Shown one piece after another: positions 23,047-45,680 of a stretch of 64,000 nucleotides of DNA. The notes under the pieces were generated by a model. The model did not search any database, was not told the DNA's origin, and saw nothing but the letters and a program-made list of their open reading frames with translations. A program made the position numbers and the translations under genes. The DNA lies in the NCBI RefSeq assembly GCF_014174395.1, contig NZ_JABEQD010000001.1, positions 1 through 64,000 of the forward strand. The letters run 5' to 3'. Numbering within the stretch: the stretch's first letter is position 1; every line of letters begins with the position of its first letter. Source of the stretch: Gluconacetobacter aggeris (lineage in GTDB: Bacteria > Pseudomonadota > Alphaproteobacteria > Acetobacterales > Acetobacteraceae).

Positions 23047-23083
23047 CGTTTCTCTGCTTTCTCGCTTCATGCGCCTGGTTTCT

Positions 23084-23205
23084 GTTCTTTTTTGAAAAAA
23101 AGAACCAAAAAACTTTTGATTCGTTCAGGAATTTTGTGCTGGGGACACGCGATGGCCCAAGACGGATAAAAGTCTTTTTGCTTCTTTTTCGTAAGACAAA
23201 AGAAG
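23084..23205. repeat. Two A/T-rich hairpins between amaA and amaB
   Basis: GTTCTTTTTT (23084-23093) pairs with AAAAAAGAAC (23096-23105), and CTTCTTTT (23181-23188) with AAAAGAAG (23198-23205). The whole AT-rich patch stands out in an operon of GC-rich genes and looks like an inserted intergenic repeat. It may weaken read-through from amaA into amaB. A related short patch (CTTTTTGAAAAGAG) occurs near 45779. Confidence 0.5.
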
Positions 23206-23215
23206 AAACCTCCCC

Positions 23216-24511: not shown

Positions 24512-24551
24512 CGCGTGCTCTTTTCCTTGCGGGTGACCCAACGGCCTTCAA

Positions 24552-25919
24552 TCACGCGGCAGTCGCATCACGCAGACATTGCCGGACATCGGCGATGGAT
24601 CGGTCCTGAAGCGCCGCGTACAGCGCGCACTCATCCAGCACCTCGGCGCCCAGGGCGGCCTCGAACCCCGCGCGGTCGGCGCTGGCGGCATACTCCGCCC
24701 CACCCGAACCACCCAGATTGGAGCGAAAGATCCCCGCCGCGCTCACCGGCAGAAAATCCTCGTACGTAATCGGCGTGGCCACCACCACCCCAAACCGCAC
24801 CAGATCCCCGATCGGCGCCTCGGCCGACAGGCCGGGCGGCAGCGACGCACCACCCGTCAGGTCGTAGCGGAAATAGGCCAGGTCCTGCCCGCGCAGCTCG
24901 TCCTCGGTATCGGGAAACCGCGCAAAGGCCCGTTCCAGCCGCGCCCCATACGGCACATCCTCCGGCCCGTCGTCACGCGCCACGCGCAGCAGGCGGTCAT
25001 ACAGCGCCCGCCCTTTCGGGGTCAGCGCCATGCCACGCTGCTCGATCTCGCCGAACCGGGCGGTATGGCGCCCGTCCTCGCCCGCATCGCCCGCCCCGAG
25101 AAACAGGATCGGCTCCTCCAGCGCGGCGAAACTGGTCTGGCGCAGCAGGATCGGACACGCCCGGCGGGGCGGCCCCTCGATCACGTCCTTGGCCCGCATG
25201 CCGTAGAGCGGCATCTCGGCCTGCGCCGCATCGATATCCAGCGTGCGCGGCGTCAGATGATTGATATGCGGCCCCTTGAAGCACACCACGTCCGCAATCA
25301 GCCGATGCGCGTCATGCAGGCGGCGATAGGTGGCGGCACTGACCGTTGCCTCGCGATGCCAGCGGAACGTCTCCAGCGCCTCGCGGACAAACCGGTCCGC
25401 CTGCGCGTCCCCAAGCCCACCCTCGGCCTCCCACTGCCCGATCAGCGCCAGCACGCCGGGCGTGAAGATCCGCCGCGCCGCCAGAATGCGCTCGGCCTCG
25501 GCGCGCAGGGCCACGTCCGCGATCAGGTCCAGCCGCAGCAGCGAGGTAAAGACACGGAACGGATTGCGCCCCAGCGCCGCCTCATCGACCGGCCGGAAGG
25601 CAGTGGAATGCACCGGAATGCCCGCAACCGACAGATCGTAATATCCGACCGGCGCCATGCCCATCACGGCAAACAGCCGGCGCATGGTCGCCAGTTCCGC
25701 CGCCGTGCCCAGCCGGATCGCACCGTGCCGTTCCACATCCAGCCGCGCCAGCGCGCCGGTTGCCTCCAGCCGGGCCTTCAGGGCCGGGTCGTCCCGCAGA
25801 ACCTGCGCATTCACCCGCGCGACCAGCTCCGTCAGGGCGCCATACTGGGGCACCTCCTGGCGATACATCTCCGACATCGCCCGCGCGAAACGGGCCCGGA
25901 TCTCATCCGCGCCGATCAT
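24552..25919 (-). CDS. hglS: 2-oxoadipate dioxygenase/decarboxylase (HglS, DUF1338)
   Basis: About 455 residues. It shows the metal-site motifs of the DUF1338/HglS family: VHSTAFRPV, GPHINHLTPR and FGEIEQRGMALT. The family N-terminus EMYRQEVPQYG also matches. HglS uses Fe(II) and O2 to turn 2-oxoadipate into D-2-hydroxyglutarate and CO2, joining lysine/2-aminoadipate breakdown to central metabolism. Here it is the first gene of hglS-amaA-amaB and divergent from a LysR regulator. A 2-aminoadipate aminotransferase is not in the block. The start is uncertain: ATG 25919 gives family length, but GTG at 25937 or 25934 follows a purine-rich GGTGGGGA. The frame stays open to 26093. Confidence 0.9.
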   Translation of the reverse strand: MIGADEIRARFARAMSEMYRQEVPQYGALTELVARVNAQVLRDDPALKARLEATGALARLDVERHGAIRLGTAAELATMRRLFAVMGMAPVGYYDLSVAGIPVHSTAFRPVDEAALGRNPFRVFTSLLRLDLIADVALRAEAERILAARRIFTPGVLALIGQWEAEGGLGDAQADRFVREALETFRWHREATVSAATYRRLHDAHRLIADVVCFKGPHINHLTPRTLDIDAAQAEMPLYGMRAKDVIEGPPRRACPILLRQTSFAALEEPILFLGAGDAGEDGRHTARFGEIEQRGMALTPKGRALYDRLLRVARDDGPEDVPYGARLERAFARFPDTEDELRGQDLAYFRYDLTGGASLPPGLSAEAPIGDLVRFGVVVATPITYEDFLPVSAAGIFRSNLGGSGGAEYAASADRAGFEAALGAEVLDECALYAALQDRSIADVRQCLRDATAA

Positions 25920-26101
25920 CCCGGTCTTGTCCACCACACGTCCCCACCCTGTCGGGCGCCCCTGGCGCGGCCTGTTATTCCGATTCCATATCATTCGCGA
26001 CGACGGCCCGCCTTTCAAACGATAAAGGAAACTGACATCATGCGGATCTGGAATGACCGCGCACTCCGCGCGCCATTCCCCCTTCGCATCCACGGGCTGA
26101 C

Positions 26102-30966: not shown

Positions 30967-31110
30967 AGCTTCCAAAGCCCCATCCAGTTCGAGAAAATGG
31001 CGGCTAATCGAACCAACGTCTCTCCGTTTTAACGGGGCAAGTCCACTGGCCAGCCGCGCGGGTGTGGTGGAGGCTCTGATGGCGCTGGGGATCGGGCGCG
31101 GCAGATCTCG

Positions 31111-31130
31111 TTATTCATACCCATGAATAA
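31111..31130. promoter_or_regulatory. 20-bp inverted repeat upstream of the catabolic cluster
   Basis: TTATTCATACCCATGAATAA has perfect 8-bp arms around ACCC, about 70-90 bases before the MHS transporter start. A good operator candidate. Confidence 0.55.
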
Positions 31131-31151
31131 AATTACGATGACACATCGAGT

Positions 31152-31165
31152 CCATATCGATATGG
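31152..31165. promoter_or_regulatory. 14-bp palindrome upstream of the catabolic cluster
   Basis: CCATATCGATATGG is a perfect palindrome 32 bases before the transporter start codon and 21 bases after the 20-bp inverted repeat. Both lie in an AT-rich promoter-like stretch. Confidence 0.55.
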
Positions 31166-31197
31166 CAATAATTGAAGTATGATGAAAAGGCACCGAT

Positions 31198-32502
31198 ATG
31201 ATTGGCAACATGATGACCGTCGCCGAAGCAGAGGTCACAGACCTCCGAAGCAGGTCCTCCGCGACGTCATCAATCGGCACCATTATCGCGATTGTACTAG
31301 GAAACGCCCTGGAAGTTTATGATTTTACCGTCTATAGTTTTTTCTCCACCTATATCGCGCGGGCATTCTTTCCTGACGGCAGCGAGCTGCTCTCGTTGCT
31401 CGTCGCGCTGGCAACGTTCGGCGTGGGTTTCTTTGCCCGGCCGTTCGGCGCCGCGATCATCGGCCATTATGCCGACCGCCATGGCCGCAAGCCGGCTCTG
31501 ACATTGACGATCGGCCTGATGGTTGTGGGAACCGCCGCCATCGCGTTCGCGCCGGACTATGCGCAATTCGGCATCGCCGCGTCGCTGCTGGTCGTTATCG
31601 GGCGTCTGCTTCAGGGCTTTTCGTCGGGGGGCGAGATCGGGACCGCCACGACTTTGCTGCTTGAGAGCGCCAGTCGTGACCGTCGGTGCGAGTTGGTGAG
31701 CTGGCAGGCGGCAAGTCAGGGCGGGGCCGCGCTTTTCGGCGCCCTGGTCGGTGTATCGGTACATGGACTGATGTCCGAAGCCTCTATGCAGGCCTGGGGC
31801 TGGCGCGTTCCGTTTCTGATCGCCCTGCTGATCGGGCCGCTCGGCCTTTATATTCGCAGCACCCTGCGCGAATCGGCGCCTCCCGCGGAGGCTGTCCCCG
31901 TCCGCTGGTCGGGCATCTTCGTCAGCGAATGGAAGACGTTGTTGCAGGGGATTCTGCTGATGGCCGGGAGTACGGTGTCCACCTATATCATGATCTATTA
32001 CATGCCGGTTTATCTGGTGCGTTCGCTCGGTTTTTCCCAGACCATCGCGTTTTCCGTGCCCTGCATCGCCGGGTTGGCCATCCTTGTCGTCGGACCGCTG
32101 GGTGGGCGCCTCGCCGATCGGCTGGGGCTGCGCAAATCCTTGCCAATGGGGCTTGGGGTGTTCCAGATGCTGCTGATCTTTCCGCTGTTTCACCTGTTGG
32201 CATCGGGAGCGTCGCCATTCATTATTCTCTCAGTCATGGCGTTATTTTTTGCAACGGGGGCCATCGGAACGGGAGCGGGAACCGCCCTGATGATCGAAGC
32301 CTTTCCCTGTCGCCACCGGGCTGCCGGAATGTCCATATCCTATAGTTGCGGCGTGACGATTTTCGGCGGGTTCGCCCCCATGATCGTCACCTGGCTGATC
32401 GCCGTCACCCACAATGTCATGGCCCCCGCCTGGTATCTGTTCGCGGCCATGATGGTCAGTATGATGACGGTCATTTTCTTTCCGTCTGAAAATACGGAAT
32501 AG
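31198..32502 (+). CDS. MFS transporter, metabolite:H+ symporter (MHS/ProP) type
   Basis: 434 residues with twelve hydrophobic segments. Family motifs include LGNALEVYDFTVYSFFSTY in helix 1, the loop GHYADRHGRKPALTLTIGLM, and GRLLQGFSSGGEIGTATTLL in helix 5, typical of MHS proteins that import organic acids, betaines or shikimate-like compounds. First gene of a five-gene same-strand cluster, so it probably imports the substrate or the product released by the amidase or M20 enzyme. ATG 31198 has AAAAGG eight bases upstream. Codon use and GC are lower than in the flanking core genes. Confidence 0.92.
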   Translation: MIGNMMTVAEAEVTDLRSRSSATSSIGTIIAIVLGNALEVYDFTVYSFFSTYIARAFFPDGSELLSLLVALATFGVGFFARPFGAAIIGHYADRHGRKPALTLTIGLMVVGTAAIAFAPDYAQFGIAASLLVVIGRLLQGFSSGGEIGTATTLLLESASRDRRCELVSWQAASQGGAALFGALVGVSVHGLMSEASMQAWGWRVPFLIALLIGPLGLYIRSTLRESAPPAEAVPVRWSGIFVSEWKTLLQGILLMAGSTVSTYIMIYYMPVYLVRSLGFSQTIAFSVPCIAGLAILVVGPLGGRLADRLGLRKSLPMGLGVFQMLLIFPLFHLLASGASPFIILSVMALFFATGAIGTGAGTALMIEAFPCRHRAAGMSISYSCGVTIFGGFAPMIVTWLIAVTHNVMAPAWYLFAAMMVSMMTVIFFPSENTE

Positions 32503-32550
32503 AAATCAAAAACGAATATAATAATTCTACGATAGCTTCAGGAAATTGAG

Positions 32551-33960
32551 ATGTACGATACATGTACGACCGGTTCGCCGGCCGAACTGAGTGCTGCTTG
32601 CCTGGTGGAACGGTATCGCAGCGGCGCGCTTTCGCCCGTCGAGGTGGTTCGCTCGGTGCTGGAGCGGATCGAGGCATGGGAGCCGGCCCTTCACGCCACC
32701 TATGCCATGAGCGCCGATGCCGCGTTGGCGGAGGCGCGCGCCTCCGAGGCCCGCTGGCGCGATCATGCGCCGCTGGGTCTGCTGGATGGCGTGCCGGTCA
32801 CCGTGAAGGAAAACATCGCCAGCAAGGGCGTGCCGTCCCCGCTGGGCAGTGCGGCGACGGACTTGGTGCCGGCGACGCAGGATGCGCCGCCGATGGCGCG
32901 GCTGCGGGAAGCCGGCGCCATTCTGGTTACCAAGACCACCATGCCGGATTTCGGTCTGCTGGCGGCCTCGCCGTCCAGCTTCCATCCGCTAACGCGCAAC
33001 CCGTGGGATCCGAGCAAGACCCCTGGCGGCTCCAGTTCCGGTGCCGCCGCCGCCGCCGCCGCTGGGTACGGTCCGCTGCATGTCGGTACCGATATCGGCG
33101 GCTCGATCCGTATTCCCGCCGGTTTCTGCGGCGTATTCGGACTGAAGCCGAGCTGGGGGCGCGTGCCGCACCTGCCGCCCTATTTCTTTCGTGTCACGGG
33201 CCCCATCACGCGGGATGTGGCCGACGCGGCGACCATGATGCAGGTGATGTCCTTGCCGGATGACCGCGATTACATGAGCCTCCCTTTCCAACCTGTGGCC
33301 TGGAGCGATCTGGCGCATGCCAGCCTGAAGGGGTTGCGTCTGGGCCTGCTTCTGGACCCCGGCAGCGGCCTGTGCCTGGACCCGGAGGTGGAGGCGGCCG
33401 TCACGAGCGCCGCCCGAACCTTTGAGGCGCATGGTGCCGATGTGGAACTGGTCGAGAACTGGATCGAACCCGCCATGCGCGACGGGTTCAGCACCTTCAT
33501 GCATATCCGGGCGGCGGTAGATCTGGAGGATCTGGCACCAGAACAGCAGGCGAGGTTACACCCACAGCTTCGCGAAGCCCTCCTGAAACAGCCTGCTATC
33601 GGCGGAAAGGCGTTCTATCGGGCCTACCAAAACGTCCTGGCGATGCGCCAGCGCACGGCGCAGGTGACCGGCCGGTTCAATTTCGTCCTGTCCCCCGTTT
33701 CGCCCGTGCCCGCATTTGCCGCTGAATCCTGGTGTGCGAACCCCGAGTCCGGGCTGATGTACGATATCGCCTACACCTGCGTTCATAACGTCTCGGAACA
33801 GCCAGCGGCCGCGATCAATTGTGGCTACACGCAAGCCGGCCTGCCTATCGGCCTGCAAATTGCCGGGCGCCGGTTCGACGATATCGGCGTGCTTCGCCTG
33901 GCACGCGCCTGGGAGTTGATGCGGCCAGCACAACACGCCTGGCCCAAACCGCCCGCCTGA
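32551..33960 (+). CDS. Amidase signature family hydrolase
   Basis: 469 residues. The amidase-signature triad is visible: Lys in GVPVTVKENIASKG, the cis-Ser in TPGGSSSGAAAAAAAG and the nucleophile Ser in GTDIGGSIRIPAG, followed by FCGVFGLKPSWGRVP. It hydrolyses a carboxamide or arylamide bond. No signal peptide, so cytoplasmic. It follows the MHS transporter after 48 bases and precedes the receptor gene. The family includes indoleacetamide, nicotinamide and peptide amidases; the substrate cannot be named. Confidence 0.92.
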   Translation: MYDTCTTGSPAELSAACLVERYRSGALSPVEVVRSVLERIEAWEPALHATYAMSADAALAEARASEARWRDHAPLGLLDGVPVTVKENIASKGVPSPLGSAATDLVPATQDAPPMARLREAGAILVTKTTMPDFGLLAASPSSFHPLTRNPWDPSKTPGGSSSGAAAAAAAGYGPLHVGTDIGGSIRIPAGFCGVFGLKPSWGRVPHLPPYFFRVTGPITRDVADAATMMQVMSLPDDRDYMSLPFQPVAWSDLAHASLKGLRLGLLLDPGSGLCLDPEVEAAVTSAARTFEAHGADVELVENWIEPAMRDGFSTFMHIRAAVDLEDLAPEQQARLHPQLREALLKQPAIGGKAFYRAYQNVLAMRQRTAQVTGRFNFVLSPVSPVPAFAAESWCANPESGLMYDIAYTCVHNVSEQPAAAINCGYTQAGLPIGLQIAGRRFDDIGVLRLARAWELMRPAQHAWPKPPA

Positions 33961-34056
33961 ATCGCCGCAGAGCTTCGCTCGGCTCCATTCACCAGATCAT
34001 TCGGATCATCTCGTTTTCGGGGATTGCGAAACCTCGCTAAGGGTAAAGGATAGGTC

Positions 34057-36393
34057 ATGTCTTCGCGACAAAGCGCCGCTATTTTCTGCATGCTGTTCGG
34101 CTGTACGATCATGTCGGATATTTCGGCACGGGCGGCAGCGGGACCGAAAAAGCCGGTTCGCTCTGCCCACCCTTCCACCACAGCACCTGGGCGCCAGCCG
34201 ACCGTCGTCGCACGAGCAAAGGCCCGGGATACCCGCCTGCCGGTCGCGGTGGGCGAGACGGTCGATGTCAACGGCGCGCGCCGGGCCTTCCGCTTTTCCC
34301 AGGCGCAGCATAGTGCGGATTCCGCGACCCGCATCACCGCCGAGGAACTGACCAACCGCAATGTCGTCACCATCGCCGACTTGCAGCAATTGCTGCCGAA
34401 CGTGACGATCCAGAGCATGAACGGAACCTCGACGATCAATTACCTGCTGCGCGGCGTCGGCATGAACGATTACACGCAGAACGCCATGTCGTCGGTCATG
34501 ACCTATATCGACGGTGTTGCGTTTCCGCTGGGGCAGATGAGCAATGGCATGATGTTCGACCTTGCTTCGGTCGACGTCACGCCCGGTCCGGTCGGAACGG
34601 AACATGGCCAGACCGATACTGGCGGTGAAATCAACATCCACACCGCTGATCCCACGGCGACATGGCATGGCGGGCTGTCGGAAGACATTGCCAGCTACGC
34701 GCGCAACCGCACGAATTTCCATGTTTCCGGTCCACTGTCGCGCACCGTCTCATTCCGCATTGCCGGGCAGGCACAGCAGGGCGGTGGATGGCAGAGCATG
34801 CCGCTGGATGGATCGCACTTGGGAGATGCCAACGAAGGGGCGCTGAGGGCGAAACTGAGATGGCAGCCGGACGAGAAGACCGACATCATGCTGACGGGCC
34901 ATTGGGTGCAGGACGACTCCCAGGTTGTAACGGGAAAGCCGTTCCTGAACGTCCAACCGGTCGGGCCGAGCCCGAATATGGGGTTCTACCAGGCCGAATG
35001 GGACCTGCGCCCGCAATTCGCCGCCCTGTTCGGGCGTTCAGCCAGTATCAAGCCTTCGGAACATAACACGTTCTGGGGCGCCGACCTGAAGATGTCGCGG
35101 CAACTCGGCTTTGCCACGCTGAGCAGCATCAGCGCGTTCGAGACCGAGCGGATCGGCGAGTATACCGACCAGGATGCCACGCAATATGCGACCGGCGACC
35201 AGTACCGCAACGTCGTGTCCAACACGTTCTCGCAGGAACTCAGCCTGAAATCGGCGCATCAGCAGAGCCCCTTCCATTGGAGCATCGGGGCTTATTACGA
35301 TCGCGTCCGCATGGCGCAGCAATTCTTCATGGACTTCACGCAATATCTGCCGCAGCGCGGCTATTTGTCCGAAACCTCGTACCAGCAGAACCAGCAGACA
35401 TTTTCGCAGTTTGCGCATCTTTCGTACAGATTTCCGCATAACGTTACCCTGTTTGGCGGCATCACGCATGAGGCAGACGACCGGCAGCTTCTGGGACTGG
35501 CCACGAGGCATTTCGGGATCAGCACTCTGAACTTCAACAATGAAGCGACGTCTGCTAACCAGTTCAGCGGCGTTGTTGGCGTGCAGTGGCAGCCTGTCTC
35601 AAACCTGATGGCCTATTTCAAGGTCAGCAAGGGGTTCAAGCCCGGAGGGTTTACCGCGAACAATACCGTGATCCAGGCGCAACTTGCACCCTATAAGCCA
35701 GAAACGCTGCTGGCTTATGAGGTGGGCTTCAAGAGCGATATCGTTCCGAATGTCTTTCGCCTGAACGGGGCCGCATTCTATTACGACTACCACGACCAGC
35801 AGGTGCTGACGACGCTCCTCGTACCGAATTACGGGCCGTTGGGAATGTTCATGAACGCGCCAAAATCACAGATCTGGGGGATTGAACTGAATACGGAAAT
35901 CCATCCTTTCAGGCATATCTTCCTTAGTGGAAATCTTGGTTACCAGCGTGGAAACTACCAGATATACCAGACGCTTAACACGACGGCCGTCGCCGCATAT
36001 GCTCAGACCCACGGTGGTGTGTGGCAGGCCTTCTATACCGACTATTCCGGGACCGATACCGGCATGCCGAAACTTTCCATGAGTGGAACGGCAGAATACC
36101 GGTTCAATCCGTTGAACGGATATGAATGGGTCACCGCCGTCGACGGCAGTTATCGCGGCGCGCAGGCAATGTCGCCCGGCGTGACCTCCGGCATGTTCCT
36201 GATGCCGTCATATTTCCTGCTGGGTGCGCATATGACGTTCCGGCCTGCTTCCGGCCGCTGGTCGGTGACCGCCTATGCCTCCAACATCCTGCAGCGCCAT
36301 TACGAGGTAAGCGCGGGCATGGAAACCACCACCTATTACTACATGCCTTCTCCACCGCGCTTCATCGGCGGCCGGTTCGGATTCAATTTCTGA
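34057..36393 (+). CDS. TonB-dependent outer-membrane receptor
   Basis: 778 residues. An N-terminal signal sequence (IFCMLFGCTIMSDISARA) precedes a linker. The plug domain starts near residue 90 (ITAEELTNRNVVTIADLQQL then LPNVTIQSMNGTSTINYLLR). The 22-strand barrel follows, with FKVSKGFKPGGFTAN and YKPETLLAYEVGFKS late in the sequence. The C-terminus FIGGRFGFNF ends in Phe, as outer-membrane barrels do. The pattern is that of receptors used by sphingomonads and relatives for organic substrates rather than ferric siderophores. With two hydrolases around it, uptake of a bulky amide or conjugate is likely. Confidence 0.92.
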   Translation: MSSRQSAAIFCMLFGCTIMSDISARAAAGPKKPVRSAHPSTTAPGRQPTVVARAKARDTRLPVAVGETVDVNGARRAFRFSQAQHSADSATRITAEELTNRNVVTIADLQQLLPNVTIQSMNGTSTINYLLRGVGMNDYTQNAMSSVMTYIDGVAFPLGQMSNGMMFDLASVDVTPGPVGTEHGQTDTGGEINIHTADPTATWHGGLSEDIASYARNRTNFHVSGPLSRTVSFRIAGQAQQGGGWQSMPLDGSHLGDANEGALRAKLRWQPDEKTDIMLTGHWVQDDSQVVTGKPFLNVQPVGPSPNMGFYQAEWDLRPQFAALFGRSASIKPSEHNTFWGADLKMSRQLGFATLSSISAFETERIGEYTDQDATQYATGDQYRNVVSNTFSQELSLKSAHQQSPFHWSIGAYYDRVRMAQQFFMDFTQYLPQRGYLSETSYQQNQQTFSQFAHLSYRFPHNVTLFGGITHEADDRQLLGLATRHFGISTLNFNNEATSANQFSGVVGVQWQPVSNLMAYFKVSKGFKPGGFTANNTVIQAQLAPYKPETLLAYEVGFKSDIVPNVFRLNGAAFYYDYHDQQVLTTLLVPNYGPLGMFMNAPKSQIWGIELNTEIHPFRHIFLSGNLGYQRGNYQIYQTLNTTAVAAYAQTHGGVWQAFYTDYSGTDTGMPKLSMSGTAEYRFNPLNGYEWVTAVDGSYRGAQAMSPGVTSGMFLMPSYFLLGAHMTFRPASGRWSVTAYASNILQRHYEVSAGMETTTYYYMPSPPRFIGGRFGFNF

Positions 36394-36435
36394 ACATTCT
36401 TTAAAAAAGAGAAAATACTGGAAGGAGAATATGTC

Positions 36436-37878
36436 ATGAGCGACAATTGCGAGACGATCTGGAGGCTGGTCGATGCCGGCAGCCAGCGCTTTACCGCCCT
36501 CAGCGACGCCGTGTGGGAGGCGCCGGAACTCAATTACAAGGAATACCGGTCGGTCGCGCTGCACAAGCGGCGGCTGGAGGAAGAAGGCTTCCGCGTTACC
36601 ATCGATGTGGGGGGACTGCCGACTGCCATCATGGCCGAATCTGGGGAGGGCGGGCCGGTCATTGCCTTTCTTGGGGAATATGACGCGCTGCCGGGACTGA
36701 GCCAGCAGGCGGGCGCGACGGAACGCAAGCCCCTGTCGGGTGATGGCAACGGTCATGGGTGTGGACATAATCTTCTGGGTGCTGGCGCCGCGCTGGCCGC
36801 GAATGCCGTCAGGGAGTGGCTGGCGACCACCGGCACGCCCGGCCGGGTACGGTATTATGGGTGCCCGGCGGAGGAAGGAGGCGCCGGAAAGGGGTTCATG
36901 GTGCGTGAGGGCGTGTTCGATGACGTCGATATCGCGATCTCGTGGCATCCGTTCTGGATAGCGGGCGTGGCACCCGCCGCATCGCTGGCCTCGCAGCGGA
37001 TTGATTTCACGTTTGTCGGGCGGGCCGCCCATGCCGCCGCCGCTCCCTTTCTGGGCCGGTCGGCACTGGATGCTGCAGAGTTGATGAATATCGGGGTGAA
37101 TTACCTGCGTGAACATATGCTGCCGACATCGCGGATCCATTATGCCTATGTGGATGCGGGGGGCACCGCGCCGAATGTCGTGCAGTCCCGCGCCGTTCTG
37201 GCCTATTCCGTCCGCGCCACGGAACTGGACGAAATGCTGAAATTGGCCGGAAGGGTACGGAGAATCGCGGAAGGAGCCGCGATGATGACGGAGACGACGA
37301 TGTCGTCGCGCGTGATCAGCGGCATGGCGGAGCTGCTGCCCAACCGCCCGCTGGAGCAGGCGATGCAGCGATGCCTGGAGCGCCTGGGGCCGCCGCCGTT
37401 CTCGGAGGCCGATCGCGCTGTTGCCCGAGAGATGCGGAAGACCTTCTCGGAAGGTGAATTGCAGACCGCTCGCCGGCTGCTCGCGCCCCTCGTCCGGGGG
37501 AGCGAAGAACTGGTGGTCTGTGACGTGGTGCCGCCCCTGCTGCCGGAGGGGCAGTCGCCCGGCGGGATGATGGGGTCAACCGACGTCGGAGATGTGAGCT
37601 GGCAGGTGCCGACCGTGCAGGCCCTCGGCGCGACCTGTGCCATCGGGACGGCGCTCCATTCCTGGCAGATGGTGGCCCAGGGAAAATCCTCGCTTGCGCA
37701 TACGGGGATGATCCATGTGGCGAAACTGATGGCTGCCACCGCCATCGAGGTGCTGACCCAGCCCGGCCTGCTGGAGGCGGCCCGTTCGGCTCTGGCGGAC
37801 AAGCTGCGTAGGGCCTCTTATGTCTGCCCGATTCCGGCGGATGTCTCGCCGTCGCTCGACCTGGTTCCCGAAGTATGA
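36436..37878 (+). CDS. M20 amidohydrolase, AbgB-like (aminobenzoyl-glutamate hydrolase type)
   Basis: 480 residues, the length of AbgB rather than of the shorter hippurate/IAA-amino-acid hydrolases. The metal site is visible: GDGNGHGCGHNLLGAG, the catalytic Glu pair in YGCPAEEGGAGK, ISWHPFW, and a C-terminal His in ALHSWQMVAQGKSS. The dimerisation domain begins at FTFVGRAAHAAAAPF. Such enzymes cleave the amide bond of N-acyl amino acids. ATG 36436 follows GGAAGGAGAATATGTC, 42 bases after the receptor. With the amidase and receptor it suggests use of an amino-acid conjugate. It need not be folate-derived. Confidence 0.9.
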   Translation: MSDNCETIWRLVDAGSQRFTALSDAVWEAPELNYKEYRSVALHKRRLEEEGFRVTIDVGGLPTAIMAESGEGGPVIAFLGEYDALPGLSQQAGATERKPLSGDGNGHGCGHNLLGAGAALAANAVREWLATTGTPGRVRYYGCPAEEGGAGKGFMVREGVFDDVDIAISWHPFWIAGVAPAASLASQRIDFTFVGRAAHAAAAPFLGRSALDAAELMNIGVNYLREHMLPTSRIHYAYVDAGGTAPNVVQSRAVLAYSVRATELDEMLKLAGRVRRIAEGAAMMTETTMSSRVISGMAELLPNRPLEQAMQRCLERLGPPPFSEADRAVAREMRKTFSEGELQTARRLLAPLVRGSEELVVCDVVPPLLPEGQSPGGMMGSTDVGDVSWQVPTVQALGATCAIGTALHSWQMVAQGKSSLAHTGMIHVAKLMAATAIEVLTQPGLLEAARSALADKLRRASYVCPIPADVSPSLDLVPEV

Positions 37879-37971
37879 GACCCTGATTGAAAATGCGGGC
37901 TGGTGGCACGGTCGCCTTTTCCGTCCGGTCGTGTCTTGTGACATGGTCTTCGGGCCTTTAGGGTTCTGTTA
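37877..37971. repeat. IS-end-like repeat after the M20 gene
   Basis: GAGACCCTGATTGAAAATGC (37877-37896), continuing GGGCTGGTGGC, is about 80 percent identical to the left arm of the MITE-like element at 15149. A poorer inverted match (AGGGTTCT) lies near 37962-37971, so about 95 bp could be a decayed miniature element. It lies between the M20 gene and lysR. Confidence 0.4.
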
Positions 37972-38037
37972 CGCTCCCGGCGGCTTGTCGTGTCGTCGCG
38001 GGAGCAGGGCAAGCGATGCGACCGAGAGGAGGGCCAG

Positions 38038-38955
38038 GTGAAGCTGCACCATTTGCGCGCACTCGTCGCGCTGGCCGAAACCGGGAGCTTCAATGCCGCG
38101 TCCGAGACGCTGAATATCACCCAGGGCGCGCTGAGCAAGGCGATCAAGGAACTGGAATCGTCACTGGGCATCGCGCTCTTCGAACGATCGAACAAGGGGG
38201 CGCGTCTGACGTCGCAGGGGCAGCGGCTGGTCATGCATGCCCGCTTCATCAATGAAAGCGTGCGCCGGGCGAAGGACGACCTGCTGGAAGCGGAGGATTC
38301 CGGGAACATCACGACGACGATCGGTATCACCCCGGTCGTTTCGATCATGAAGGAAGTCGGTGACTGTATCATAGAATTTCGCCGACGTAATCCGAAGATC
38401 CGTCTACGGGTTCTGGAAATGCGTCCCAGCCAGCTGATGCAGGAACTGCGCGACGGTACGCTCGATTTCGCCCTCAGTTCACAGATGCCTGCCTATAGCC
38501 GGCCAGACGAGTGTGTGCTGCTACGGCATATTCCCTCTTTGCTGGCCTGCCGCAAGGGGCATCCGCTGCGTGAGGCGCGGTCGATGCGTGATCTGCTGGA
38601 CCAGGAATGGGTGGTCCACGATCCGCGCGACGATGTGACCGCGCCGTTCCACCGCTTGTTTACCCAGGAGAGGCTGCGCTTTCCCGAACGGGTGACGGAA
38701 TGTACGGCCACGGTGACGGCGCATCTCCTGACCGTGAACACCGACAGCGTGACGATGTTGACCAGTGCGTCGTTCACGCATCGCGCCATTGCAGAGACAT
38801 TGGTGCCGATTCAGGTTCGCGAGATGCTGCCCGCGCGAGAACTGGTGCTGGTCGCCCGCAACCGGCATGTCTTTACCGCGCCGGTGCTACAGCTGTATGA
38901 GACGGTTCGGAAATCGCTTTCAGATCCGACCCTGTTGCCGTCACATCACCTGTGA
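38038..38955 (+). CDS. LysR family regulator of the amidase cluster
   Basis: 305 residues from GTG 38038, chosen because GAGGAGGG sits four bases upstream; the longer frame to 37990 has no such site. The winged helix is HHLRALVALAETGSFNAASE followed by LNITQGALSKAIKELESSLG. The effector domain follows (TTTIGITPVVSIMKEVGD). It resembles CbbR/GbpR-type regulators of catabolic genes. It is the last gene of the cluster on the same strand, so it would act on the promoter at 31111-31165 rather than a divergent one. It ends 60 bases before the IS5 debris. Confidence 0.9.
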   Translation: MKLHHLRALVALAETGSFNAASETLNITQGALSKAIKELESSLGIALFERSNKGARLTSQGQRLVMHARFINESVRRAKDDLLEAEDSGNITTTIGITPVVSIMKEVGDCIIEFRRRNPKIRLRVLEMRPSQLMQELRDGTLDFALSSQMPAYSRPDECVLLRHIPSLLACRKGHPLREARSMRDLLDQEWVVHDPRDDVTAPFHRLFTQERLRFPERVTECTATVTAHLLTVNTDSVTMLTSASFTHRAIAETLVPIQVREMLPARELVLVARNRHVFTAPVLQLYETVRKSLSDPTLLPSHHL

Positions 38956-39014
38956 CTGATCCGTGGGTTTGCGAGAACCTGATGCGATCAAGATGGCCCA
39001 GGTCCTGTCTGCCT

Positions 39015-39117
39015 TCAGCGTAGCCAGATCATGGCGCATGCGAGATGGGTGAAGCCCATGATGGCGGTGAGTGTCTTTTCGCATCGCAGGGCGATCCGTC
39101 GGAAGCGTTGGAAAGGC
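39015..39117 (-). pseudogene. IS5-family transposase, C-terminal scrap
   Basis: The minus frame reads FQRFRRIALRCEKTLTAIMG then FTHLACAMIWLR and stops at 39015-39017. This is the usual C-terminal end of IS5-type transposases. Nothing of the rest of the gene precedes it. Confidence 0.75.
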
Positions 39118-39230
39118 TCGTCCTCCATCGGCAACCCTGAATCTGAACTTCAATTCAAAAGAAGTCCCTGAATGCAGACAGGACGTAGACTGAAATCGCC
39201 CGTGCGCAGTATTGCGAGGACAATCTGGAG

Positions 39231-39440
39231 TATGCAAGCGACCTGCGCGATGCGGAATGGGCGCTGCTTGCGCCACTGATGCCCGAGCGGAAACGACTGG
39301 GGAGGCCGCGACGTACTGATTTGCGCCGCGTCATGGAGGTGATCCTCTATATCGTCACGACCGGTTGCCAATGGCGGCGCTTGCCCAGGCACTTTGACCG
39401 TGCAAGGCTATTCCCATCGGTCTTGTCATCCGCGCATGGT
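39231..39440 (+). pseudogene. IS5-family transposase, N-terminal scrap with frameshift
   Basis: The plus frame reads YASDLRDAEWALLAPLMPER then RTDLRRVMEVILYIVTTGCQ and WRRLPRHF. That is the N-terminal domain of an IS5-type transposase. After the PRHF segment the family sequence continues only in the next frame (LTVQGYSH) and is lost by about 39440. With the opposite-facing C-terminal scrap on its left, this is a rearranged scar, not an intact IS. Confidence 0.75.
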
Positions 39441-39447
39441 TGGAAGA

Positions 39448-39837
39448 TTACAATTCACCCGTCACAAACTGGGCACGACCGTTACCAAAAGACCAGTCAT
39501 CGTCGGTATTCTGGACAAACGAGATCATAACGTCCGACGGTGCGATTCCACATTTGTCCTGCCATTCGGCACAGAGGATCTCGTAGAAAGCCAGCTTGGC
39601 CTCGCGGCTGCGTGGCCGCGAGACGACTTCGAGCAGGACGAATTTCTCGGTTCTCGGGATATCGAGGCCGGTATCCAGCGCGCGCAGATGCGTGGGCTCG
39701 TGTTCGACCAGGATCTGATAGCGGTCTCGGGCCGGTACCTTGAACGCACGCAGCATCGCCTCATGGGCGGCATCGAGAAGCTGATCGATCTCTGCCGGTG
39801 TCCGTCCCTTCAGGACGTGGAATTTCATCAGGGGCAT
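39448..39837 (-). CDS. Tautomerase family protein
   Basis: 129 residues. It starts MPLMKFHVLKGRT, so Pro-1 would be exposed after Met removal, as in the 4-oxalocrotonate tautomerase superfamily. The length and the stretch YQILVEHEPTHLRALDTGL fit the longer tautomerase_2 type (malonate semialdehyde decarboxylase or cis-CaaD-like) rather than the 60-residue 4-OT. It would isomerise or dehalogenate/decarboxylate a keto or enol acid. AAAGGAACGCCT precedes the ATG. It lies 43 bases after the aminotransferase gene on the same strand, so the two are co-transcribed. The 3' end abuts the IS scar. Confidence 0.85.
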   Translation of the reverse strand: MPLMKFHVLKGRTPAEIDQLLDAAHEAMLRAFKVPARDRYQILVEHEPTHLRALDTGLDIPRTEKFVLLEVVSRPRSREAKLAFYEILCAEWQDKCGIAPSDVMISFVQNTDDDWSFGNGRAQFVTGEL

Positions 39838-39880
39838 AGGCGTTCCTTTCGTGTGAATGACGTTGACGAAGGCTTCTCCG

Positions 39881-41215
39881 TCAGGCAGCGCGGGTGATTA
39901 CGTCGCCGAGAATCGAGACAATGGTATCGATATGATCCGTCGTGACGATCAGGGGCGGAGAGAGGGCAATGATGTCGCCGGTGACGCGGATGAGCAGGCC
40001 CTTGCGGAAGCAATCGACGAAGACGTCATAGGCGCGCGCTCCGGGCGCGCCGTCGCGCGCGGCCAGTTCGATTGCGCCGACCAGTCCGAGATTGCGGATA
40101 TCGAGGACATGCGGCCGGTCGACCAGGCTGTGCAGGGCGTCCTGCCAATAGGTGGCGAGTTCGGCGCCCCGCGTCAGGAGTCCATCTTCGGCGTAGACGT
40201 CGAGTGTCGCCAGACCCGCCGCGCAGGCGACCGGGTGGCCGGAATAGGTGTAGCCGTGAAAGAGTTCGATCTGCTGTTCCGGCCCGGTCATGAGACCATC
40301 ATAGACCTTGCGGCTGGCAAAGACCGCGCCCATCGGAATGGTACCGTTGGTCAGGCCCTTGGCGGTGGTGACCAGATCGGGGACCACGCCGAAATAATCC
40401 GTCGCGAACGGGGTGCCCAGCCGCCCGAAGCCGGTAATGACTTCATCGAAAATGAGAAGAATGCCGTGCTGGTCGGCGATGGCGCGCAGCCGCTCCAGAT
40501 AGCCTTTAGGCGGCAGGACGACACCCGCCGATCCCGACATCGGTTCGACGATGACGGCGGCGATGGTCTCGGCGCCGTGCAGCGCGACCAGACGTTCCAG
40601 ATCCTCCGCCAGTTCGACCCCATGCCGCGGCAGCCCCTTCGAGAAGGCATTGCGCGGGATGTCGAGCGTATGGCGTAAATGAGCGGCGGGAATTTGGGGA
40701 AAGACCCGGCGGTTGTTCACCAGCCCGCCGACCGAGATACCCCCGAAGCCGACACCATGATAGCCCTTTTCCCGACCGATGACGCGGGTACGTGTGCCCT
40801 GGCCGATGGCCCGCTGATAGGCGATCGCAATTTTCAGCGCCGTTTCCACGGATTCCGAGCCGGACCCGGTAAAGAACACGCGGTCGAGCCCGGCCGCCGG
40901 GCCGCCAGGGGCGATCGCGGCCAGCCTCTCGGCGAATTCAAAGGCGATCGGATGGCCCATCTGGAAGGTCGGGGCGAAGTCCAGCGTCGCAAGCTGGCGG
41001 GTGACGGAGTCGGTGATCTGCCGACGGCCATGGCCCGCATTGACGCACCACAACCCCGCGGTACCGTCCATGACCCGATGGCCATCGACGTCGGTATAAT
41101 ACATGCCTTCGGCACCGGCCAGGAGGCGCGGCGCCGCCTTGAATTGCCGGTTCGCGGTAAAGGGCATCCAGAAATTATCCAGAACGGGCATATTCGTTTT
41201 CGCGGTCGGGCTCAT
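39881..41215 (-). CDS. Class III aminotransferase, omega-amino acid:pyruvate type
   Basis: About 444 residues. It has DNFWMPFTANRQFKAAPRLL at the start, typical of beta-alanine/omega-amino acid:pyruvate aminotransferases. Then FFTGSGSESVETALKIA, the PLP-phosphate region KGYHGVGFGGISVGG, LLIFDEVITGFGRLG with the PLP-ring Asp, and the Schiff-base Lys in LVTTAKGLTNGTIPMGAV. It would transfer the amino group of beta-alanine or another omega-amino acid to pyruvate. ATG 41215 has GGGAG six bases upstream. A tautomerase that can act on semialdehyde or keto acids follows, and an XRE-cupin regulator is divergent. Confidence 0.9.
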   Translation of the reverse strand: MSPTAKTNMPVLDNFWMPFTANRQFKAAPRLLAGAEGMYYTDVDGHRVMDGTAGLWCVNAGHGRRQITDSVTRQLATLDFAPTFQMGHPIAFEFAERLAAIAPGGPAAGLDRVFFTGSGSESVETALKIAIAYQRAIGQGTRTRVIGREKGYHGVGFGGISVGGLVNNRRVFPQIPAAHLRHTLDIPRNAFSKGLPRHGVELAEDLERLVALHGAETIAAVIVEPMSGSAGVVLPPKGYLERLRAIADQHGILLIFDEVITGFGRLGTPFATDYFGVVPDLVTTAKGLTNGTIPMGAVFASRKVYDGLMTGPEQQIELFHGYTYSGHPVACAAGLATLDVYAEDGLLTRGAELATYWQDALHSLVDRPHVLDIRNLGLVGAIELAARDGAPGARAYDVFVDCFRKGLLIRVTGDIIALSPPLIVTTDHIDTIVSILGDVITRAA

Positions 41216-41357
41216 GCCGGGCTCCCATGAATGAGCCTGTGGGATCAACGATTCCGGCCGTGTGAACAAGTCCTTTTCTCCTCGCGCGCAACCTCTTGAA
41301 TTGGCGTGAGCGTCATGCCTAGATTTGCGATATATTCAACACCGGGAACGGAACAAG

Positions 41358-41906
41358 ATGTCGGTCGATATCGGCAATCGTCTGCGCCATTTTCGCTTGG
41401 CCCATAATCTGTCGCAGCGGGAACTGGCCAAACGGACAGGCGTCACGAATTCGACGATCTCACTGATAGAGTCCAACTCGTCGAACCCGTCCGTGGGTGC
41501 GCTGAAGCGCATTCTTGATGGAATTCCGATCGGACTGGCCGAATTCTTTGCTCTTGAACCCGATCGTCCCAGGAGGGTGTTCTACGCATCGGAGGAATTG
41601 ACGGAAATCGGCAAGGGGACGATTTCATACCGACAGGTCGGCGACAATCTGTTCGGTCGCAGTCTTCAGATGCTGAAGGAATGCTATCAGCCGGGCTCGG
41701 ATACAGGGAAGGTCCCCCTGATTCATGACGGAGAAGAGGGGGGCATTATTCTGTCGGGCCGACTGGAGGTCACGGTCGACGATGAACGCAAGATCCTTGG
41801 GCCGGGCGATGCCTATTATTTCGAAAGCCGTCGTCCGCATCGCTTTCGTTGTGTGGGGTCGGAAGCGTGTCAGGTCATCAGTGCCTGCACGCCCCCGAGC
41901 TTCTAA
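41358..41906 (+). CDS. XRE-cupin regulator (PuuR-like)
   Basis: 182 residues. The helix-turn-helix is RLRHFRLAHNLSQRELAKRT then GVTNSTISLIESNSSNPSVG. The C-terminal cupin domain has HDGEEGGIILSGRLEVTVDD and GPGDAYYFESRRPHRFRCVG. This layout is that of PuuR-type regulators next to polyamine or omega-amino-acid degradation genes. It is divergent from the aminotransferase gene and probably represses it. ATG 41358 follows GGGAACGGAACAAG. Confidence 0.9.
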   Translation: MSVDIGNRLRHFRLAHNLSQRELAKRTGVTNSTISLIESNSSNPSVGALKRILDGIPIGLAEFFALEPDRPRRVFYASEELTEIGKGTISYRQVGDNLFGRSLQMLKECYQPGSDTGKVPLIHDGEEGGIILSGRLEVTVDDERKILGPGDAYYFESRRPHRFRCVGSEACQVISACTPPSF

Positions 41907-42143
41907 CAGAAATTAGCGTGAGAGGCGCTGAATGCCAAGCTCAGGGCGGCCGAGAAAGAATGGATCGCGAGCCTATCCTGAATTTATGGAATGGTCCGCG
42001 CTTTCATAAAACTCGGTATTATACCAATTTGGCTTTACTTCGACAAATGATGCGGGTTCGTGGGGTAACATGAGAGGCGCAATGTGATTCATGAGGATGG
42101 GCAAGGCGCTGGTGTTTCGTGACGATTATGGTGCTGAGACCCT
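41907..42143. other. Non-coding stretch before the IS relic
   Basis: About 240 bases after the XRE-cupin gene hold no supported gene. The minus frame 42019-42300 runs through the end of the IS relic and is not a separate gene. Confidence 0.35.
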
Positions 42144-42617
42144 TCATGTTCTGGCTCGGGCGACGAAACAGACAGCGCAGTCGCGCCGGCTTCTGGCCTT
42201 GTGGCGATCTATGATGTGCCTCACGCAAGGACGGACCCTTTCTCGTAGGTGAAGGCATGTTTGACGCCAGAACGGGCCAGTGCTTCGCGAAAACATCCAT
42301 ATCGTGTTCGCATCCGGAACCGGCTCAGAGAGACCAAGGCCCAGGAAGCGCATGAACGACAGGCGGTCCTTGATCAGAAATTCTGTCCGTTCGTCCGACA
42401 GCGAGTGGTTCGCCTGCAAGATCAGGACCATGAACATGAAAACCAGATCGTAGGGCGGTCGGCTGCTCTTGCTTCCTTCCTGGCGCGGGATCGCCGGGAT
42501 CAGGGGACGAAACCGTTCAAAATCAACAATGACATTTAAACGTTCCAGTGCGTCGCCCTTTGCAGACAGCGCCTCCAGCCGATCGTCAACCTCGAAAAAT
42601 CCCGGCTGGCTCGCCAT
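42144..42617 (-). pseudogene. IS5/IS1182-like transposase (DUF772 N-terminus), broken
   Basis: The frame starts MASQPGFFEVDDRLEALSAK and reads VIVDFERFRPLIPAIPRQEG, DLVFMFMVLILQANHSLSDE, TEFLIKDRLSFMRFLGLGLS and PDANTIWMF, a full DUF772-type N-terminus. At about 42275 one extra T breaks the frame; the next frame continues REALARSG and soon stops. The whole catalytic DDE part is missing. This scar lies directly upstream of the truncated peroxidase gene. Confidence 0.85.
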
Positions 42618-43707: not shown

Positions 43708-44094
43708 TCAGTGATCGTCCACTTTCTTCGGCCCCAGCATCGCTTCAACGGTCTGGGCATCGAGCGCATCCTGATAATGATTGCCGAAATGGGTCCGCAC
43801 GTAATTCACCACGGACGCGATCTGCGCGGGCGAGAGAATGTCGGAAAACCACGGCATGCCGCCATGCCCCTGCGCCACGATGGTCGCCGGATAGGCCGCC
43901 ACCGCCAGGCGGGCATTATGCGCCAGCGCCGGCACCCTGCCCGCCCCGATCGCGCCCGTTCCGCCCTGCATGTGGCACGCCTGGCAGATCTGCCGGTAGA
44001 TCTCGCCCCCATCGGCCGACGGCGCCTGCGCCCGCGCCGGGCCGGCCGCGCCCCAGGCGCAGGCCAGCAGCAGGGCCAGAACCAACCGCCTCAT
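43708..44094 (-). CDS. Small c-type cytochrome
   Basis: 128 residues with a signal peptide (residues 1-22, LVLALLLACAWGAAGPARA). One haem site, IYRQICQACHMQGGTG, and the distal Met region GGMPWFSDILSPAQIASVVN are standard for class I cytochromes c, followed by YVRTHFGNHY. Its ATG overlaps the stop of the flavoprotein gene by four bases, so the two are translationally coupled. It probably takes electrons from that enzyme in the periplasm. Confidence 0.92.
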   Translation of the reverse strand: MRRLVLALLLACAWGAAGPARAQAPSADGGEIYRQICQACHMQGGTGAIGAGRVPALAHNARLAVAAYPATIVAQGHGGMPWFSDILSPAQIASVVNYVRTHFGNHYQDALDAQTVEAMLGPKKVDDH

Positions 44095-45680
44095 ACGGCC
44101 GTCGCACGATGATGAAGTTGCCGGATGGCGTCGAGCGATGACAGCAAGGCCCCCTCCTGCCAGCCTGCCATGTAAGAGGCATGATCACCGGCCAACACGA
44201 TCCTTCCTTCCATGGACACCAGATTCTGGTAATGCGCGGCCCGGTCGGCCTCGCTCCAGCGCGCGCGGCACCCCAGCATCCACGGCACGCGGCTCCACGC
44301 CACGGAGGCACCGCTCAGGAATTCCTTCCGATATTGCGGATGGATCTTCTCGCCCTGTTTCAGCGCAGCCTCGATCCGCTCTTCCGGCGTCATCCCCGCC
44401 AGGTCATATCCCCCGCGCCCCAGGGCAAACGCCCCCAGCAGAACCGCCGGTCCCGCGGCATGGAAATTGTCATTGGGGTAGGATACCAAAGCGATTTCCT
44501 GATCCGTGAAGCTGATGCCGCCATAGATCGCCTCATCCTCCTCCCAGAACCGCCGGCGAAATTCCAGCCCGATCTTCGCGTGCGACGCATACGGCACGGC
44601 GCTGATCGCAGCCTTCTTGGCCGCCGACACCTGAATATCGATCTGCGAGAGGATACTGAGCGGCAGCGTGCATACGCACCAATCCGCCTTCGTTTCATGC
44701 ATCTCGGCCGACCGCGTGTCGGCCCAGCGGACCGTCACGCCGTTTTCGTCCTGCGCAATACCCGTCACCTTGGCATTCAGGGTGATCTGGTGCGACAGGC
44801 GACTGGCAAAGGCCTTGCCGATCATGTCCATCCCCCCTACGGGCTGGAACATGGTCGGCTGCATGTCATAGCTGGTGAAGAACGTCATGCTCTTCCACAC
44901 CACCGGGTCCAGCACGTCATGAAACGGCAGCAGGTCCGAAGGCAGCGGCGCGCCATCGGCCCCGGCCCCCGGCGGCCGGGCATAGCCGCGGTGCCCCGAC
45001 ACAGGCAGCCCCTTGCGATAGGCGAGAGAGTCGTCCAGCGCCCCCCACCCTTTCAGGGCCTCCAGCAGCCGTTCTCGATCCTCCTGCGTCACGGCGTGGT
45101 CGAGCCCGCCGGTATTGACCGCCGTGGCCAGAAGCGACGCCACATTGCCGTGGAAATCCGCCGCCACCTCCCGGTAGCGCTGCGGCCTGCCGCCGAACGC
45201 ATGCGTGGAATGGACGAACGCATTGTTGTTGAACTGAATGAACGGCTCCAGCCGCACATTGAAGGCCCGGCAATAATGCAGGATGGCACGATGATGGTGC
45301 GAAATCCGCCACGGACCGGGATTGAGGTAATTCCCCGGCGCAAACCGGACCGTCTGCGTCGCACCGCCCAGCTCGGTATAGGTGTCGCCCCCACGCAGGG
45401 TCCAGTTCCGCCCACCCGGACGGTTCTGGTATTCCAGCACCTGCACCGCATAGCCGGCCCGTTCCAGCTCATACGCCGCCAGCAATCCTGCAAGGCCGGC
45501 GCCCAGCACCACCACCTTCGCCCCCCGGGGCGCCCCGGACAGGTCGGGCGCGCCGGTAAATTGCGATTCCGCCGCGTGACCAAGCGCCGTCATGGCCTGG
45601 TACATCGCCCCCGCACCCGCGATCAGGCCAATGGCCCGCAGCATGTCCCGCCGCGTGAAAGCAGTCTGGCCCGTCGTCAT
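44091..45680 (-). CDS. Tat-exported FAD amine-oxidase-like dehydrogenase
   Basis: 529 residues. A twin-arginine signal (FTRRDMLRAIGLIAGAGAMY) leads to the flavin-containing amine oxidase fold. The FAD motif is VVVLGAGLAGLLAAYELERA, followed by EYQNRPGGRNWTLRGGDTY and the C-terminal VLAGDHASYMAGWQEGALLS. Such enzymes oxidise amines or amino acids. Export folded through Tat together with a coupled cytochrome c suggests a dehydrogenase that passes electrons to the respiratory chain rather than to O2. The substrate is unknown. A truncated MauG-like gene lies on the other side of the cytochrome. Confidence 0.88.
   Translation of the reverse strand: MTTGQTAFTRRDMLRAIGLIAGAGAMYQAMTALGHAAESQFTGAPDLSGAPRGAKVVVLGAGLAGLLAAYELERAGYAVQVLEYQNRPGGRNWTLRGGDTYTELGGATQTVRFAPGNYLNPGPWRISHHHRAILHYCRAFNVRLEPFIQFNNNAFVHSTHAFGGRPQRYREVAADFHGNVASLLATAVNTGGLDHAVTQEDRERLLEALKGWGALDDSLAYRKGLPVSGHRGYARPPGAGADGAPLPSDLLPFHDVLDPVVWKSMTFFTSYDMQPTMFQPVGGMDMIGKAFASRLSHQITLNAKVTGIAQDENGVTVRWADTRSAEMHETKADWCVCTLPLSILSQIDIQVSAAKKAAISAVPYASHAKIGLEFRRRFWEEDEAIYGGISFTDQEIALVSYPNDNFHAAGPAVLLGAFALGRGGYDLAGMTPEERIEAALKQGEKIHPQYRKEFLSGASVAWSRVPWMLGCRARWSEADRAAHYQNLVSMEGRIVLAGDHASYMAGWQEGALLSSLDAIRQLHHRATAV

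What the first reader, a model, noticed from the sequence alone, without database searches (positions are those of the whole stretch)
31111..41906. Acquired catabolic block for an amide-linked or amino-acid-conjugated substrate
Seen: MHS symporter, amidase, TonB-dependent receptor, AbgB-like M20 hydrolase and LysR lie on one strand with short gaps. After an IS5 scar come a tautomerase, an omega-amino acid aminotransferase and a divergent XRE-cupin regulator. Relaxase, serine-recombinase and IS5 debris lie on the left, more IS5 relics on the right. Known: these families import, cleave amide bonds and remove amino groups. Inference: the block imports a bulky conjugate, cuts it in two steps and channels an omega-amino acid such as beta-alanine onwards. 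I know no described system with exactly this set.
Basis: partly seen in the sequence, partly recalled or inferred. Interest (0 to 1): 0.8.

Follow-up and report, generated by a model that had tools for sequence, protein, structure and literature searches.

The report
Beta-alanine decarboxylation island in acetic-acid bacterium
A recently transferred 11-kb DNA island in an acetic-acid bacterium joins genes to import and cut an amide-linked compound with a beta-alanine pathway that appears to end in an enzyme known mainly from pesticide breakdown, suggesting a natural job for that enzyme.

Summary
The genes are as described, in an acetic acid bacterium (probably Gluconacetobacter). Key correction: the "tautomerase" (39448-39837-) is a malonate semialdehyde decarboxylase (MSAD) homolog (PDB 2aag, E 9e-41; all eight checked residues kept), 43 bp behind AptA, a beta-alanine:pyruvate transaminase. 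The right half reads beta-alanine to malonate semialdehyde to acetaldehyde + CO2, with a divergent XRE-cupin regulator. In some other XRE-AptA loci MmsA follows; this genome has none over the cut-off.

Support: 21 of 30 MSAD loci (50% identity or more) in acetic acid bacteria lie within about 7 kb of genes for beta-alanine, myo-inositol or pyrimidine breakdown, which all yield malonate semialdehyde. Within 1.5 kb, 14 of 41 closer homologs have a partner, 0 of 16 distant ones.

The left half (MHS-amidase-TonB receptor-AbgB-LysR) resembles a recurrent amide-nutrient module. The block (31092-42275) is 98% identical at another site in a congener, where one core region gives 78-86%: recent transfer.

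Flow from conjugate to beta-alanine is plausible, unproven: ancestry and regulators differ, and an IS piece separates the halves. A congener's analogous cluster of other sequence families supports it. Substrate unknown. New variant of a known kind.

The parts
31092..42275 (.). whole mobile block shared with congener G011
   Evidence: blastn: 31092-35242 98.4%, 35240-42275 98.2%; nothing else of the window matches the fetched 35 kb of G011 except one 41-bp hit; flanks differ
31198..32502 (+). MHS-type metabolite:H+ symporter (inner membrane uptake)
   Evidence: PF07690/PF00083; TIGR00883 E 7e-100 but under its cut-off
32551..33960 (+). amidase-signature hydrolase
   Evidence: PF01425; NF005450 635 bits over cut-off 458; 77% to Endobacter copy
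34057..36393 (+). TonB-dependent outer-membrane receptor (interrupted in G011)
   Evidence: PF00593, PF07715; 74% to Endobacter copy
36436..37878 (+). M20 hydrolase, AbgB homolog
   Evidence: 44% identity to E. coli AbgB over 481 columns; TIGR01891 over cut-off
37990..38955 (+). LysR regulator (31% to AbgR over 281 columns)
   Evidence: PF00126, PF03466
39189..39446 (+). IS4/5-family transposase remnant between the two halves
   Evidence: PF13340 E 4e-19
39448..39837 (-). malonate semialdehyde decarboxylase homolog (MSAD)
   Evidence: PDB 2aag E 8.9e-41; P1, D37, R73, R75, W114, F116, F123, L128 all kept
39881..41269 (-). AptA, beta-alanine/omega-amino acid:pyruvate transaminase
   Evidence: NF052567 712.7 bits over cut-off 500; PDB 4b98 E 9.6e-141
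41325..41906 (+). XRE-cupin (PuuR-like) regulator, divergent from AptA
   Evidence: PF01381, PF07883; XRE homolog beside AptA in 11 of 29 loci of the class scan

Best explanation
The block is a horizontally transferred catabolic island made of two modules. Right module: AptA moves the amino group of beta-alanine to pyruvate, giving malonate semialdehyde, and MSAD decarboxylates that to acetaldehyde and CO2. The acetaldehyde would be oxidised to acetate by the cell's ordinary dehydrogenases. MSAD takes the part that MmsA (CoA-acylating dehydrogenase) plays in some related XRE-AptA loci; the XRE-cupin protein is the likely regulator. Left module: the TonB-dependent receptor and MHS symporter import an amide-linked compound, and the amidase and AbgB-like M20 enzyme hydrolyse it. 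Whole-island reading: the compound releases beta-alanine (or a beta-alanine amide), which the right module degrades. Shown: gene identities, conserved residues, recurrence, transfer. Inferred: catalysis, direction, substrate. Least certain: the coupling of the halves.
For: MSAD identity and residues; AptA identity. AptA-MSAD directly adjacent in 8 loci of acetic acid bacteria (window, G011, G002, G008, G009, G253, G218, G267) and in G536 outside the family. On the AptA tree the MSAD-paired genes fall in two separated clades: the window groups with an XRE-type gene of G613 (SH-aLRT 100; quick search) and the others form a clade whose loci mostly carry a MocR homolog, so the pairing most simply arose more than once. 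21 of 30 family loci with at least 50% identity lie near a malonate-semialdehyde-making pathway, one of them at 7 kb; within 1.5 kb, 14 of 41 closer versus 0 of 16 distant homologs (Fisher p 0.006). MmsA follows XRE-AptA in 3 of 9 re-fetched loci, directly in one; no MmsA over the cut-off in G000, G002, G011. Core AptA paralog beside a carbamoylase-family gene in 12 of 14 genus loci. Left module: of 23 receptor loci found by receptor alone, 8 have AbgB, 4 amidase, 10 MHS nearby. G005 has M20-AptA beside LysR, TonB receptor, SSF-like permease, MSAD and amidase.
Against: No assay or expression data. The halves differ in nearest relatives among fetched loci (left: Endobacter 72-77%; AptA/XRE: G613; MSAD: G983), have separate regulators and an IS piece between them. 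None of 23 receptor loci has MSAD or an AptA above 31% nearby. 9 of 30 MSAD loci have no recognised partner; the nearest MSAD (G983, 77%) sits beside glycerol kinase. 6 of 9 re-fetched XRE-AptA loci show no MmsA. AptA is common in the class (190 of 385 genomes) while MSAD is rare (5 of 385). MSAD does not replace MmsA at family level: 11 of 19 MSAD genomes also have MmsA, versus 99 of 249 overall; genus-level complementarity is only p 0.07. No AbgA partner in the block.
Confidence: 0.55

Rival explanations
1. Two independent catabolic modules merely brought together by IS elements: an amide-nutrient uptake module with a substrate unrelated to beta-alanine, and a stand-alone beta-alanine degradation pair that also drains malonate semialdehyde from pyrimidine breakdown.
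For: IS4/5 remnant exactly between them; opposite strands and separate regulators; left-type modules stand alone in L028, L030, L031, L041, L060; the genome has a second AptA beside a carbamoylase-family gene that would make the same aldehyde.
Against: G005 has an analogous cluster with receptor, permease, MSAD and amidase on one strand next to M20-AptA; the two halves moved together as one 98% block.
Confidence: 0.4
2. The MSAD homolog is not a malonate semialdehyde decarboxylase in vivo but a tautomerase or hydratase acting on another acid; the gene pairing reflects a different aldehyde acid.
For: Tautomerase-superfamily members are catalytically varied (PMC5818174, passages seen); several MSAD loci lack any related pathway.
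Against: Eight checked positions are kept in all 28 distinct family rows of at least 50% identity in the alignment, while distant rows vary; linkage to three different pathways whose shared intermediate is malonate semialdehyde.
Confidence: 0.1
3. The left module is a p-aminobenzoyl-glutamate (folate breakdown product) utilisation system like E. coli AbgABT.
For: M20 44% to AbgB; LysR 31% to AbgR.
Against: No AbgA in the block, MHS instead of AbgT, plus an amidase and a TonB receptor that the E. coli abg locus lacks; AbgB-type genes occur in this family in other settings.
Confidence: 0.08

Closest known systems
AptA-MmsA beta-alanine catabolism (beta-alanine to malonate semialdehyde to acetyl-CoA; pathway recalled)
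   Same: homologous transaminase and, in XRE-type loci, the same divergent XRE-cupin regulator
   Different: an unrelated decarboxylase instead of MmsA, so the predicted product is acetaldehyde rather than acetyl-CoA; no MmsA over the cut-off in this genome
MSAD of Pseudomonas pavonaceae 170 (1,3-dichloropropene degradation; passage of PMC10606566)
   Same: same family, all eight checked residues kept
   Different: no dehalogenase recognised among the block's genes; context is a beta-alanine transaminase, and in relatives inositol or pyrimidine catabolism
IolK of Lactobacillus casei BL23 (MSAD family; named in a passage of PMC10606566; its place in an inositol operon is recalled)
   Same: decarboxylase with an inositol pathway, as in 11 family loci here
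   Different: here paired with a beta-alanine transaminase
E. coli abgABT/abgR
   Same: AbgB homolog and a LysR regulator
   Different: no AbgA, no AbgT; TonB receptor, MHS and amidase instead

Membership tests
malonate semialdehyde decarboxylase (MSAD) | N-terminal catalytic proline, Asp37, Arg73/Arg75 and the W114/F116/F123/L128 pocket (roles recalled) | tested here: met
   alignment to 2aag and 57-row alignment
malonate semialdehyde decarboxylase (MSAD) | decarboxylation of malonate semialdehyde to acetaldehyde | not testable with these tools
   needs enzyme assay
AptA beta-alanine:pyruvate transaminase | curated equivalog score NF052567 | tested here: met
   712.7 bits over cut-off 500
AptA beta-alanine:pyruvate transaminase | activity on beta-alanine | not testable with these tools
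   needs enzyme assay
AptA-MmsA operon | MmsA (TIGR01722) present | tested here: not met
   no match over the cut-off in G000
AbgABT p-aminobenzoyl-glutamate utilisation | AbgB homolog | tested here: met
   44% over 481 columns
AbgABT p-aminobenzoyl-glutamate utilisation | AbgA partner and AbgT transporter in the same locus | tested here: not met
   only MHS, amidase, receptor, one M20 and LysR in the left half
TonB receptor-MHS-amide hydrolase module of acetic acid bacteria | receptor with MHS symporter and amide hydrolase nearby | tested here: met
   window, and 9 of 23 receptor loci with both MHS and a hydrolase

The most novel reading that the evidence does not exclude
MSAD, known mainly from xenobiotic degradation, is a native terminal enzyme of malonate-semialdehyde-producing catabolism in acetic acid bacteria, shared by beta-alanine, inositol and pyrimidine routes; and in this island it ends a complete pathway that imports a beta-alanine conjugate through a TonB receptor, hydrolyses it and yields acetaldehyde. 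That set of functions was assembled at least twice in the genus from different gene families.
Probability: 0.4. Interest if true: 0.75.

Novelty: new variant of a known kind. Interest (0 to 1): 0.58.

Why it matters
MSAD was characterised from breakdown of the soil fumigant 1,3-dichloropropene, so its natural role is largely open. Here it is repeatedly placed beside three pathways that share its substrate, which makes a direct test simple. For acetic acid bacteria an acetaldehyde-producing route fits a physiology built on ethanol and acetaldehyde oxidation (established knowledge). The island also shows a recurrent receptor-MHS-amide hydrolase module whose nutrient is unknown.

Tried and rejected
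- Plain Abg system: rejected, since AbgA and AbgT are missing.
- Simple replacement of MmsA by MSAD across the family: not supported. 11 of 19 genomes with MSAD at 50% identity or more also have MmsA, against 99 of 249 overall. In the 14-genome genus no genome lacks both (6 MSAD only, 4 both, 4 MmsA only), but one-sided Fisher p is 0.07.
- Substrate from the M20's nearest solved structure (Xaa-Arg dipeptidase, E 7e-38; beta-alanyl-lysine dipeptidase activity is recalled): kept as a lead only. AbgB is far closer (44%), and the lysine/pipecolate genes next door lie outside the mobile block.
- Receptor ligand from solved relatives: one hit to the pesticin receptor (E 3e-19) and six weak ones to siderophore receptors; not informative on the ligand.
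- Core M20 as a yardstick of G000-G011 divergence (77%): dropped, because the two copies may be paralogs; only the pyrimidine-operon region (78-86%) is used.
- Rows left out: the near-identical G011 AptA from the AptA tree and 16 of 57 distant rows from the MSAD tree. In the 1.5-kb comparison only homologs that came with loci were used; the 41 "closer" ones run down to 39% identity although the script label says 43%, and the partner list was chosen after seeing the loci.
- Literature: MSAD with beta-alanine 0 papers; MSAD with inositol 1, unrelated by title and abstract start; MSAD alone 10; name variants 14, mostly unrelated by title; further combinations 4, 5, 2 and 13 papers, nothing on this pairing in titles and abstract starts. 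Only passages of PMC10606566 and PMC5818174 were seen. The library holds open-licence papers only.
- No structure prediction was run.
Full report
What is there. The window is the start of contig C1 of a 4.3-Mb genome. Domain searches confirm MHS symporter, amidase, TonB-dependent receptor, M20 hydrolase and LysR on the plus strand, then an IS4/5-family remnant, a 129-aa tautomerase-superfamily gene and a class-III aminotransferase on the minus strand, and a divergent XRE-cupin regulator.

The tautomerase is a malonate semialdehyde decarboxylase homolog. Its best solved relatives are MSADs: 2aag (E 8.9e-41; from Pseudomonas pavonaceae, recalled) and the FG41 enzyme 3mjz (3.9e-22). Positions P1, D37, R73, R75, W114, F116, F123 and L128 are all kept (roles recalled). 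The aminotransferase matches the AptA equivalog (712.7 bits, cut-off 500) and beta-alanine:pyruvate transaminase 4b98 (E 9.6e-141). AptA makes malonate semialdehyde from beta-alanine, which is MSAD's substrate (pathway knowledge). The two genes are 43 bp apart on one strand.

Comparative test of the pair. MSAD homologs at E 1e-10 occur in 36 of 249 family genomes and 10 of 14 genus genomes; at E 1e-20 in 5 of 385 genomes of the class and 18 of 398 of the phylum. I took all 30 distinct loci with at least 50% identity from the family and genus scans (21 and 9), leaving out one fragment at a contig edge (G145). AptA is directly beside MSAD in 8 (window, G011, G002, G008, G009, G253, G218, G267), and 7 kb away in G005. 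Eleven lie in or beside myo-inositol genes (G007, G021, G069, G074, G107, G113, G153, G176, G218, G253, G271; fragmented in G153). One (G051) lies between PreT-PreA-carbamoylase and dihydropyrimidinase. So 21 of 30 are within about 7 kb of a pathway that makes malonate semialdehyde. Nine have no recognised partner: G066, G124, G204, G128, G013, two in G006, G022 (4.4-kb contig) and G010 (contig break). With equal 1.5-kb flanks and strict partners, 14 of 41 closer loci (39-100% identity) against 0 of 16 distant ones have a partner (p 0.006). These loci are related and the partner list was chosen after seeing them, so this p-value is only a guide.

G536, outside the family, has MocR-AptA-MSAD followed by a DadA-like gene, and G613 has a DadA-like gene behind AptA. 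DadA could recycle alanine to pyruvate (inference).

Independent pairing. On a tree of 51 AptA rows, the window's gene is sister to that of G613, of a different family of the class (SH-aLRT 100; quick search, no bootstrap). The other MSAD-paired genes form a separate clade, and the pyrimidine-operon paralogs another. Counts of changes cannot tell gain from loss, but two gains are the simplest reading. The window's MSAD is sister to that of G983 (bootstrap 99). An XRE homolog lies beside AptA in 11 of 29 top AptA loci of the class scan. Of 9 such loci re-fetched, 3 carry MmsA downstream, directly in G298 and about 1.4-1.5 kb on in G619 and G336; 6 show none. The window has MSAD instead, and the genome no MmsA over the cut-off. 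Against a simple swap: at family level MSAD and MmsA often coexist (11 of 19, versus 99 of 249 overall). AptA itself is common (190 of 385 genomes of the class), so pairing with MSAD is the exception.

The left half. The M20 protein is 44% identical to E. coli AbgB and 31% over a part to AbgA. Starting from the receptor alone, the genome-contig scan gave 23 loci. MHS lies nearby in 10, AbgB in 8, amidase in 4, and both MHS and a hydrolase in 9 (L042 and L047 are fragmented and counted). Several loci are from one genus, Asaia, so these are not all independent. Compact examples are LysR/receptor-MHS-AbgB in Swaminathania (L041) and receptor-MHS-M20-AbgB-M20-amidase in G022 (L060). Apart from G011, the closest fetched relative of four of the five left genes is Endobacter L028, LysR-MHS-amidase-receptor, 72-77%. 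This looks like a recurrent amide-nutrient module of the family.

Mobility. Window 31092-42275 matches G011 at 98.2-98.4% DNA, with unrelated flanks on both sides. The one core region compared (around the pyrimidine-operon AptA) is 78-86% identical. The block therefore moved recently, with both halves and the IS piece inside it. In G011 the receptor is interrupted by about 1.16 kb, so the import step may be lost there.

Are the halves coupled? For: co-transfer, and the G005 cluster, where M20-AptA lies on one strand and LysR, receptor, a 105-aa frame, an SSF-like permease (weak Pfam match), MSAD and amidase on the other, from other sequence families (receptor 36%, AptA 53%, MSAD 58%, amidase 26%). 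G010 has the same pieces on two contigs, except the M20, which would lie past a contig end. Its AptA is nearly identical to that of G005, so the two count as one case. Against: different ancestry, separate regulators, the IS piece, and 0 of 23 receptor loci with MSAD nearby. I put coupling at about even.

Verdict. An ordinary set of families in an unusual combination. The beta-alanine to acetaldehyde reading of the right half is well supported by sequence and context (about 0.85); the whole-island reading is 0.5-0.6.

Noticed in passing
21526-26093: Lysine/pipecolate catabolism genes left of the block: L-piperidine-6-carboxylate dehydrogenase (804 bits over 730), L-pipecolate oxidase-like (438.8, under cut-off 600), 2-oxoadipate dioxygenase HglS (710 over 550), then a GcvA-like LysR and an MFS transporter.
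   Followed up: partly
18407-20827: 806-aa open frame in a low-GC stretch without a Pfam match at E 1e-4.
   Followed up: no
44091-45680: Flavin amine oxidoreductase of a family that in four fetched loci (L053, L066, L067, L068) lies near an AbgB-like M20 gene.
   Followed up: partly
L203 4296-7369: In G005 a receptor-MHS pair is followed by a gamma-glutamyltransferase-family gene, another amide-cutting enzyme in the same kind of module.
   Followed up: no
L145 4616-8333: The MSAD closest to the window's (77%, G983) sits beside glycerol-3-phosphate dehydrogenase, glycerol kinase and a copper-type ATPase, with no visible link to malonate semialdehyde.
   Followed up: no
L051 13914-15077: The receptor gene of the G011 copy is interrupted by about 1.16 kb, while amidase, M20, LysR, MSAD, AptA and XRE give full-length matches.
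   Followed up: partly
52240-53775: Chemotaxis-type sensor with a protoglobin domain.
   Followed up: no
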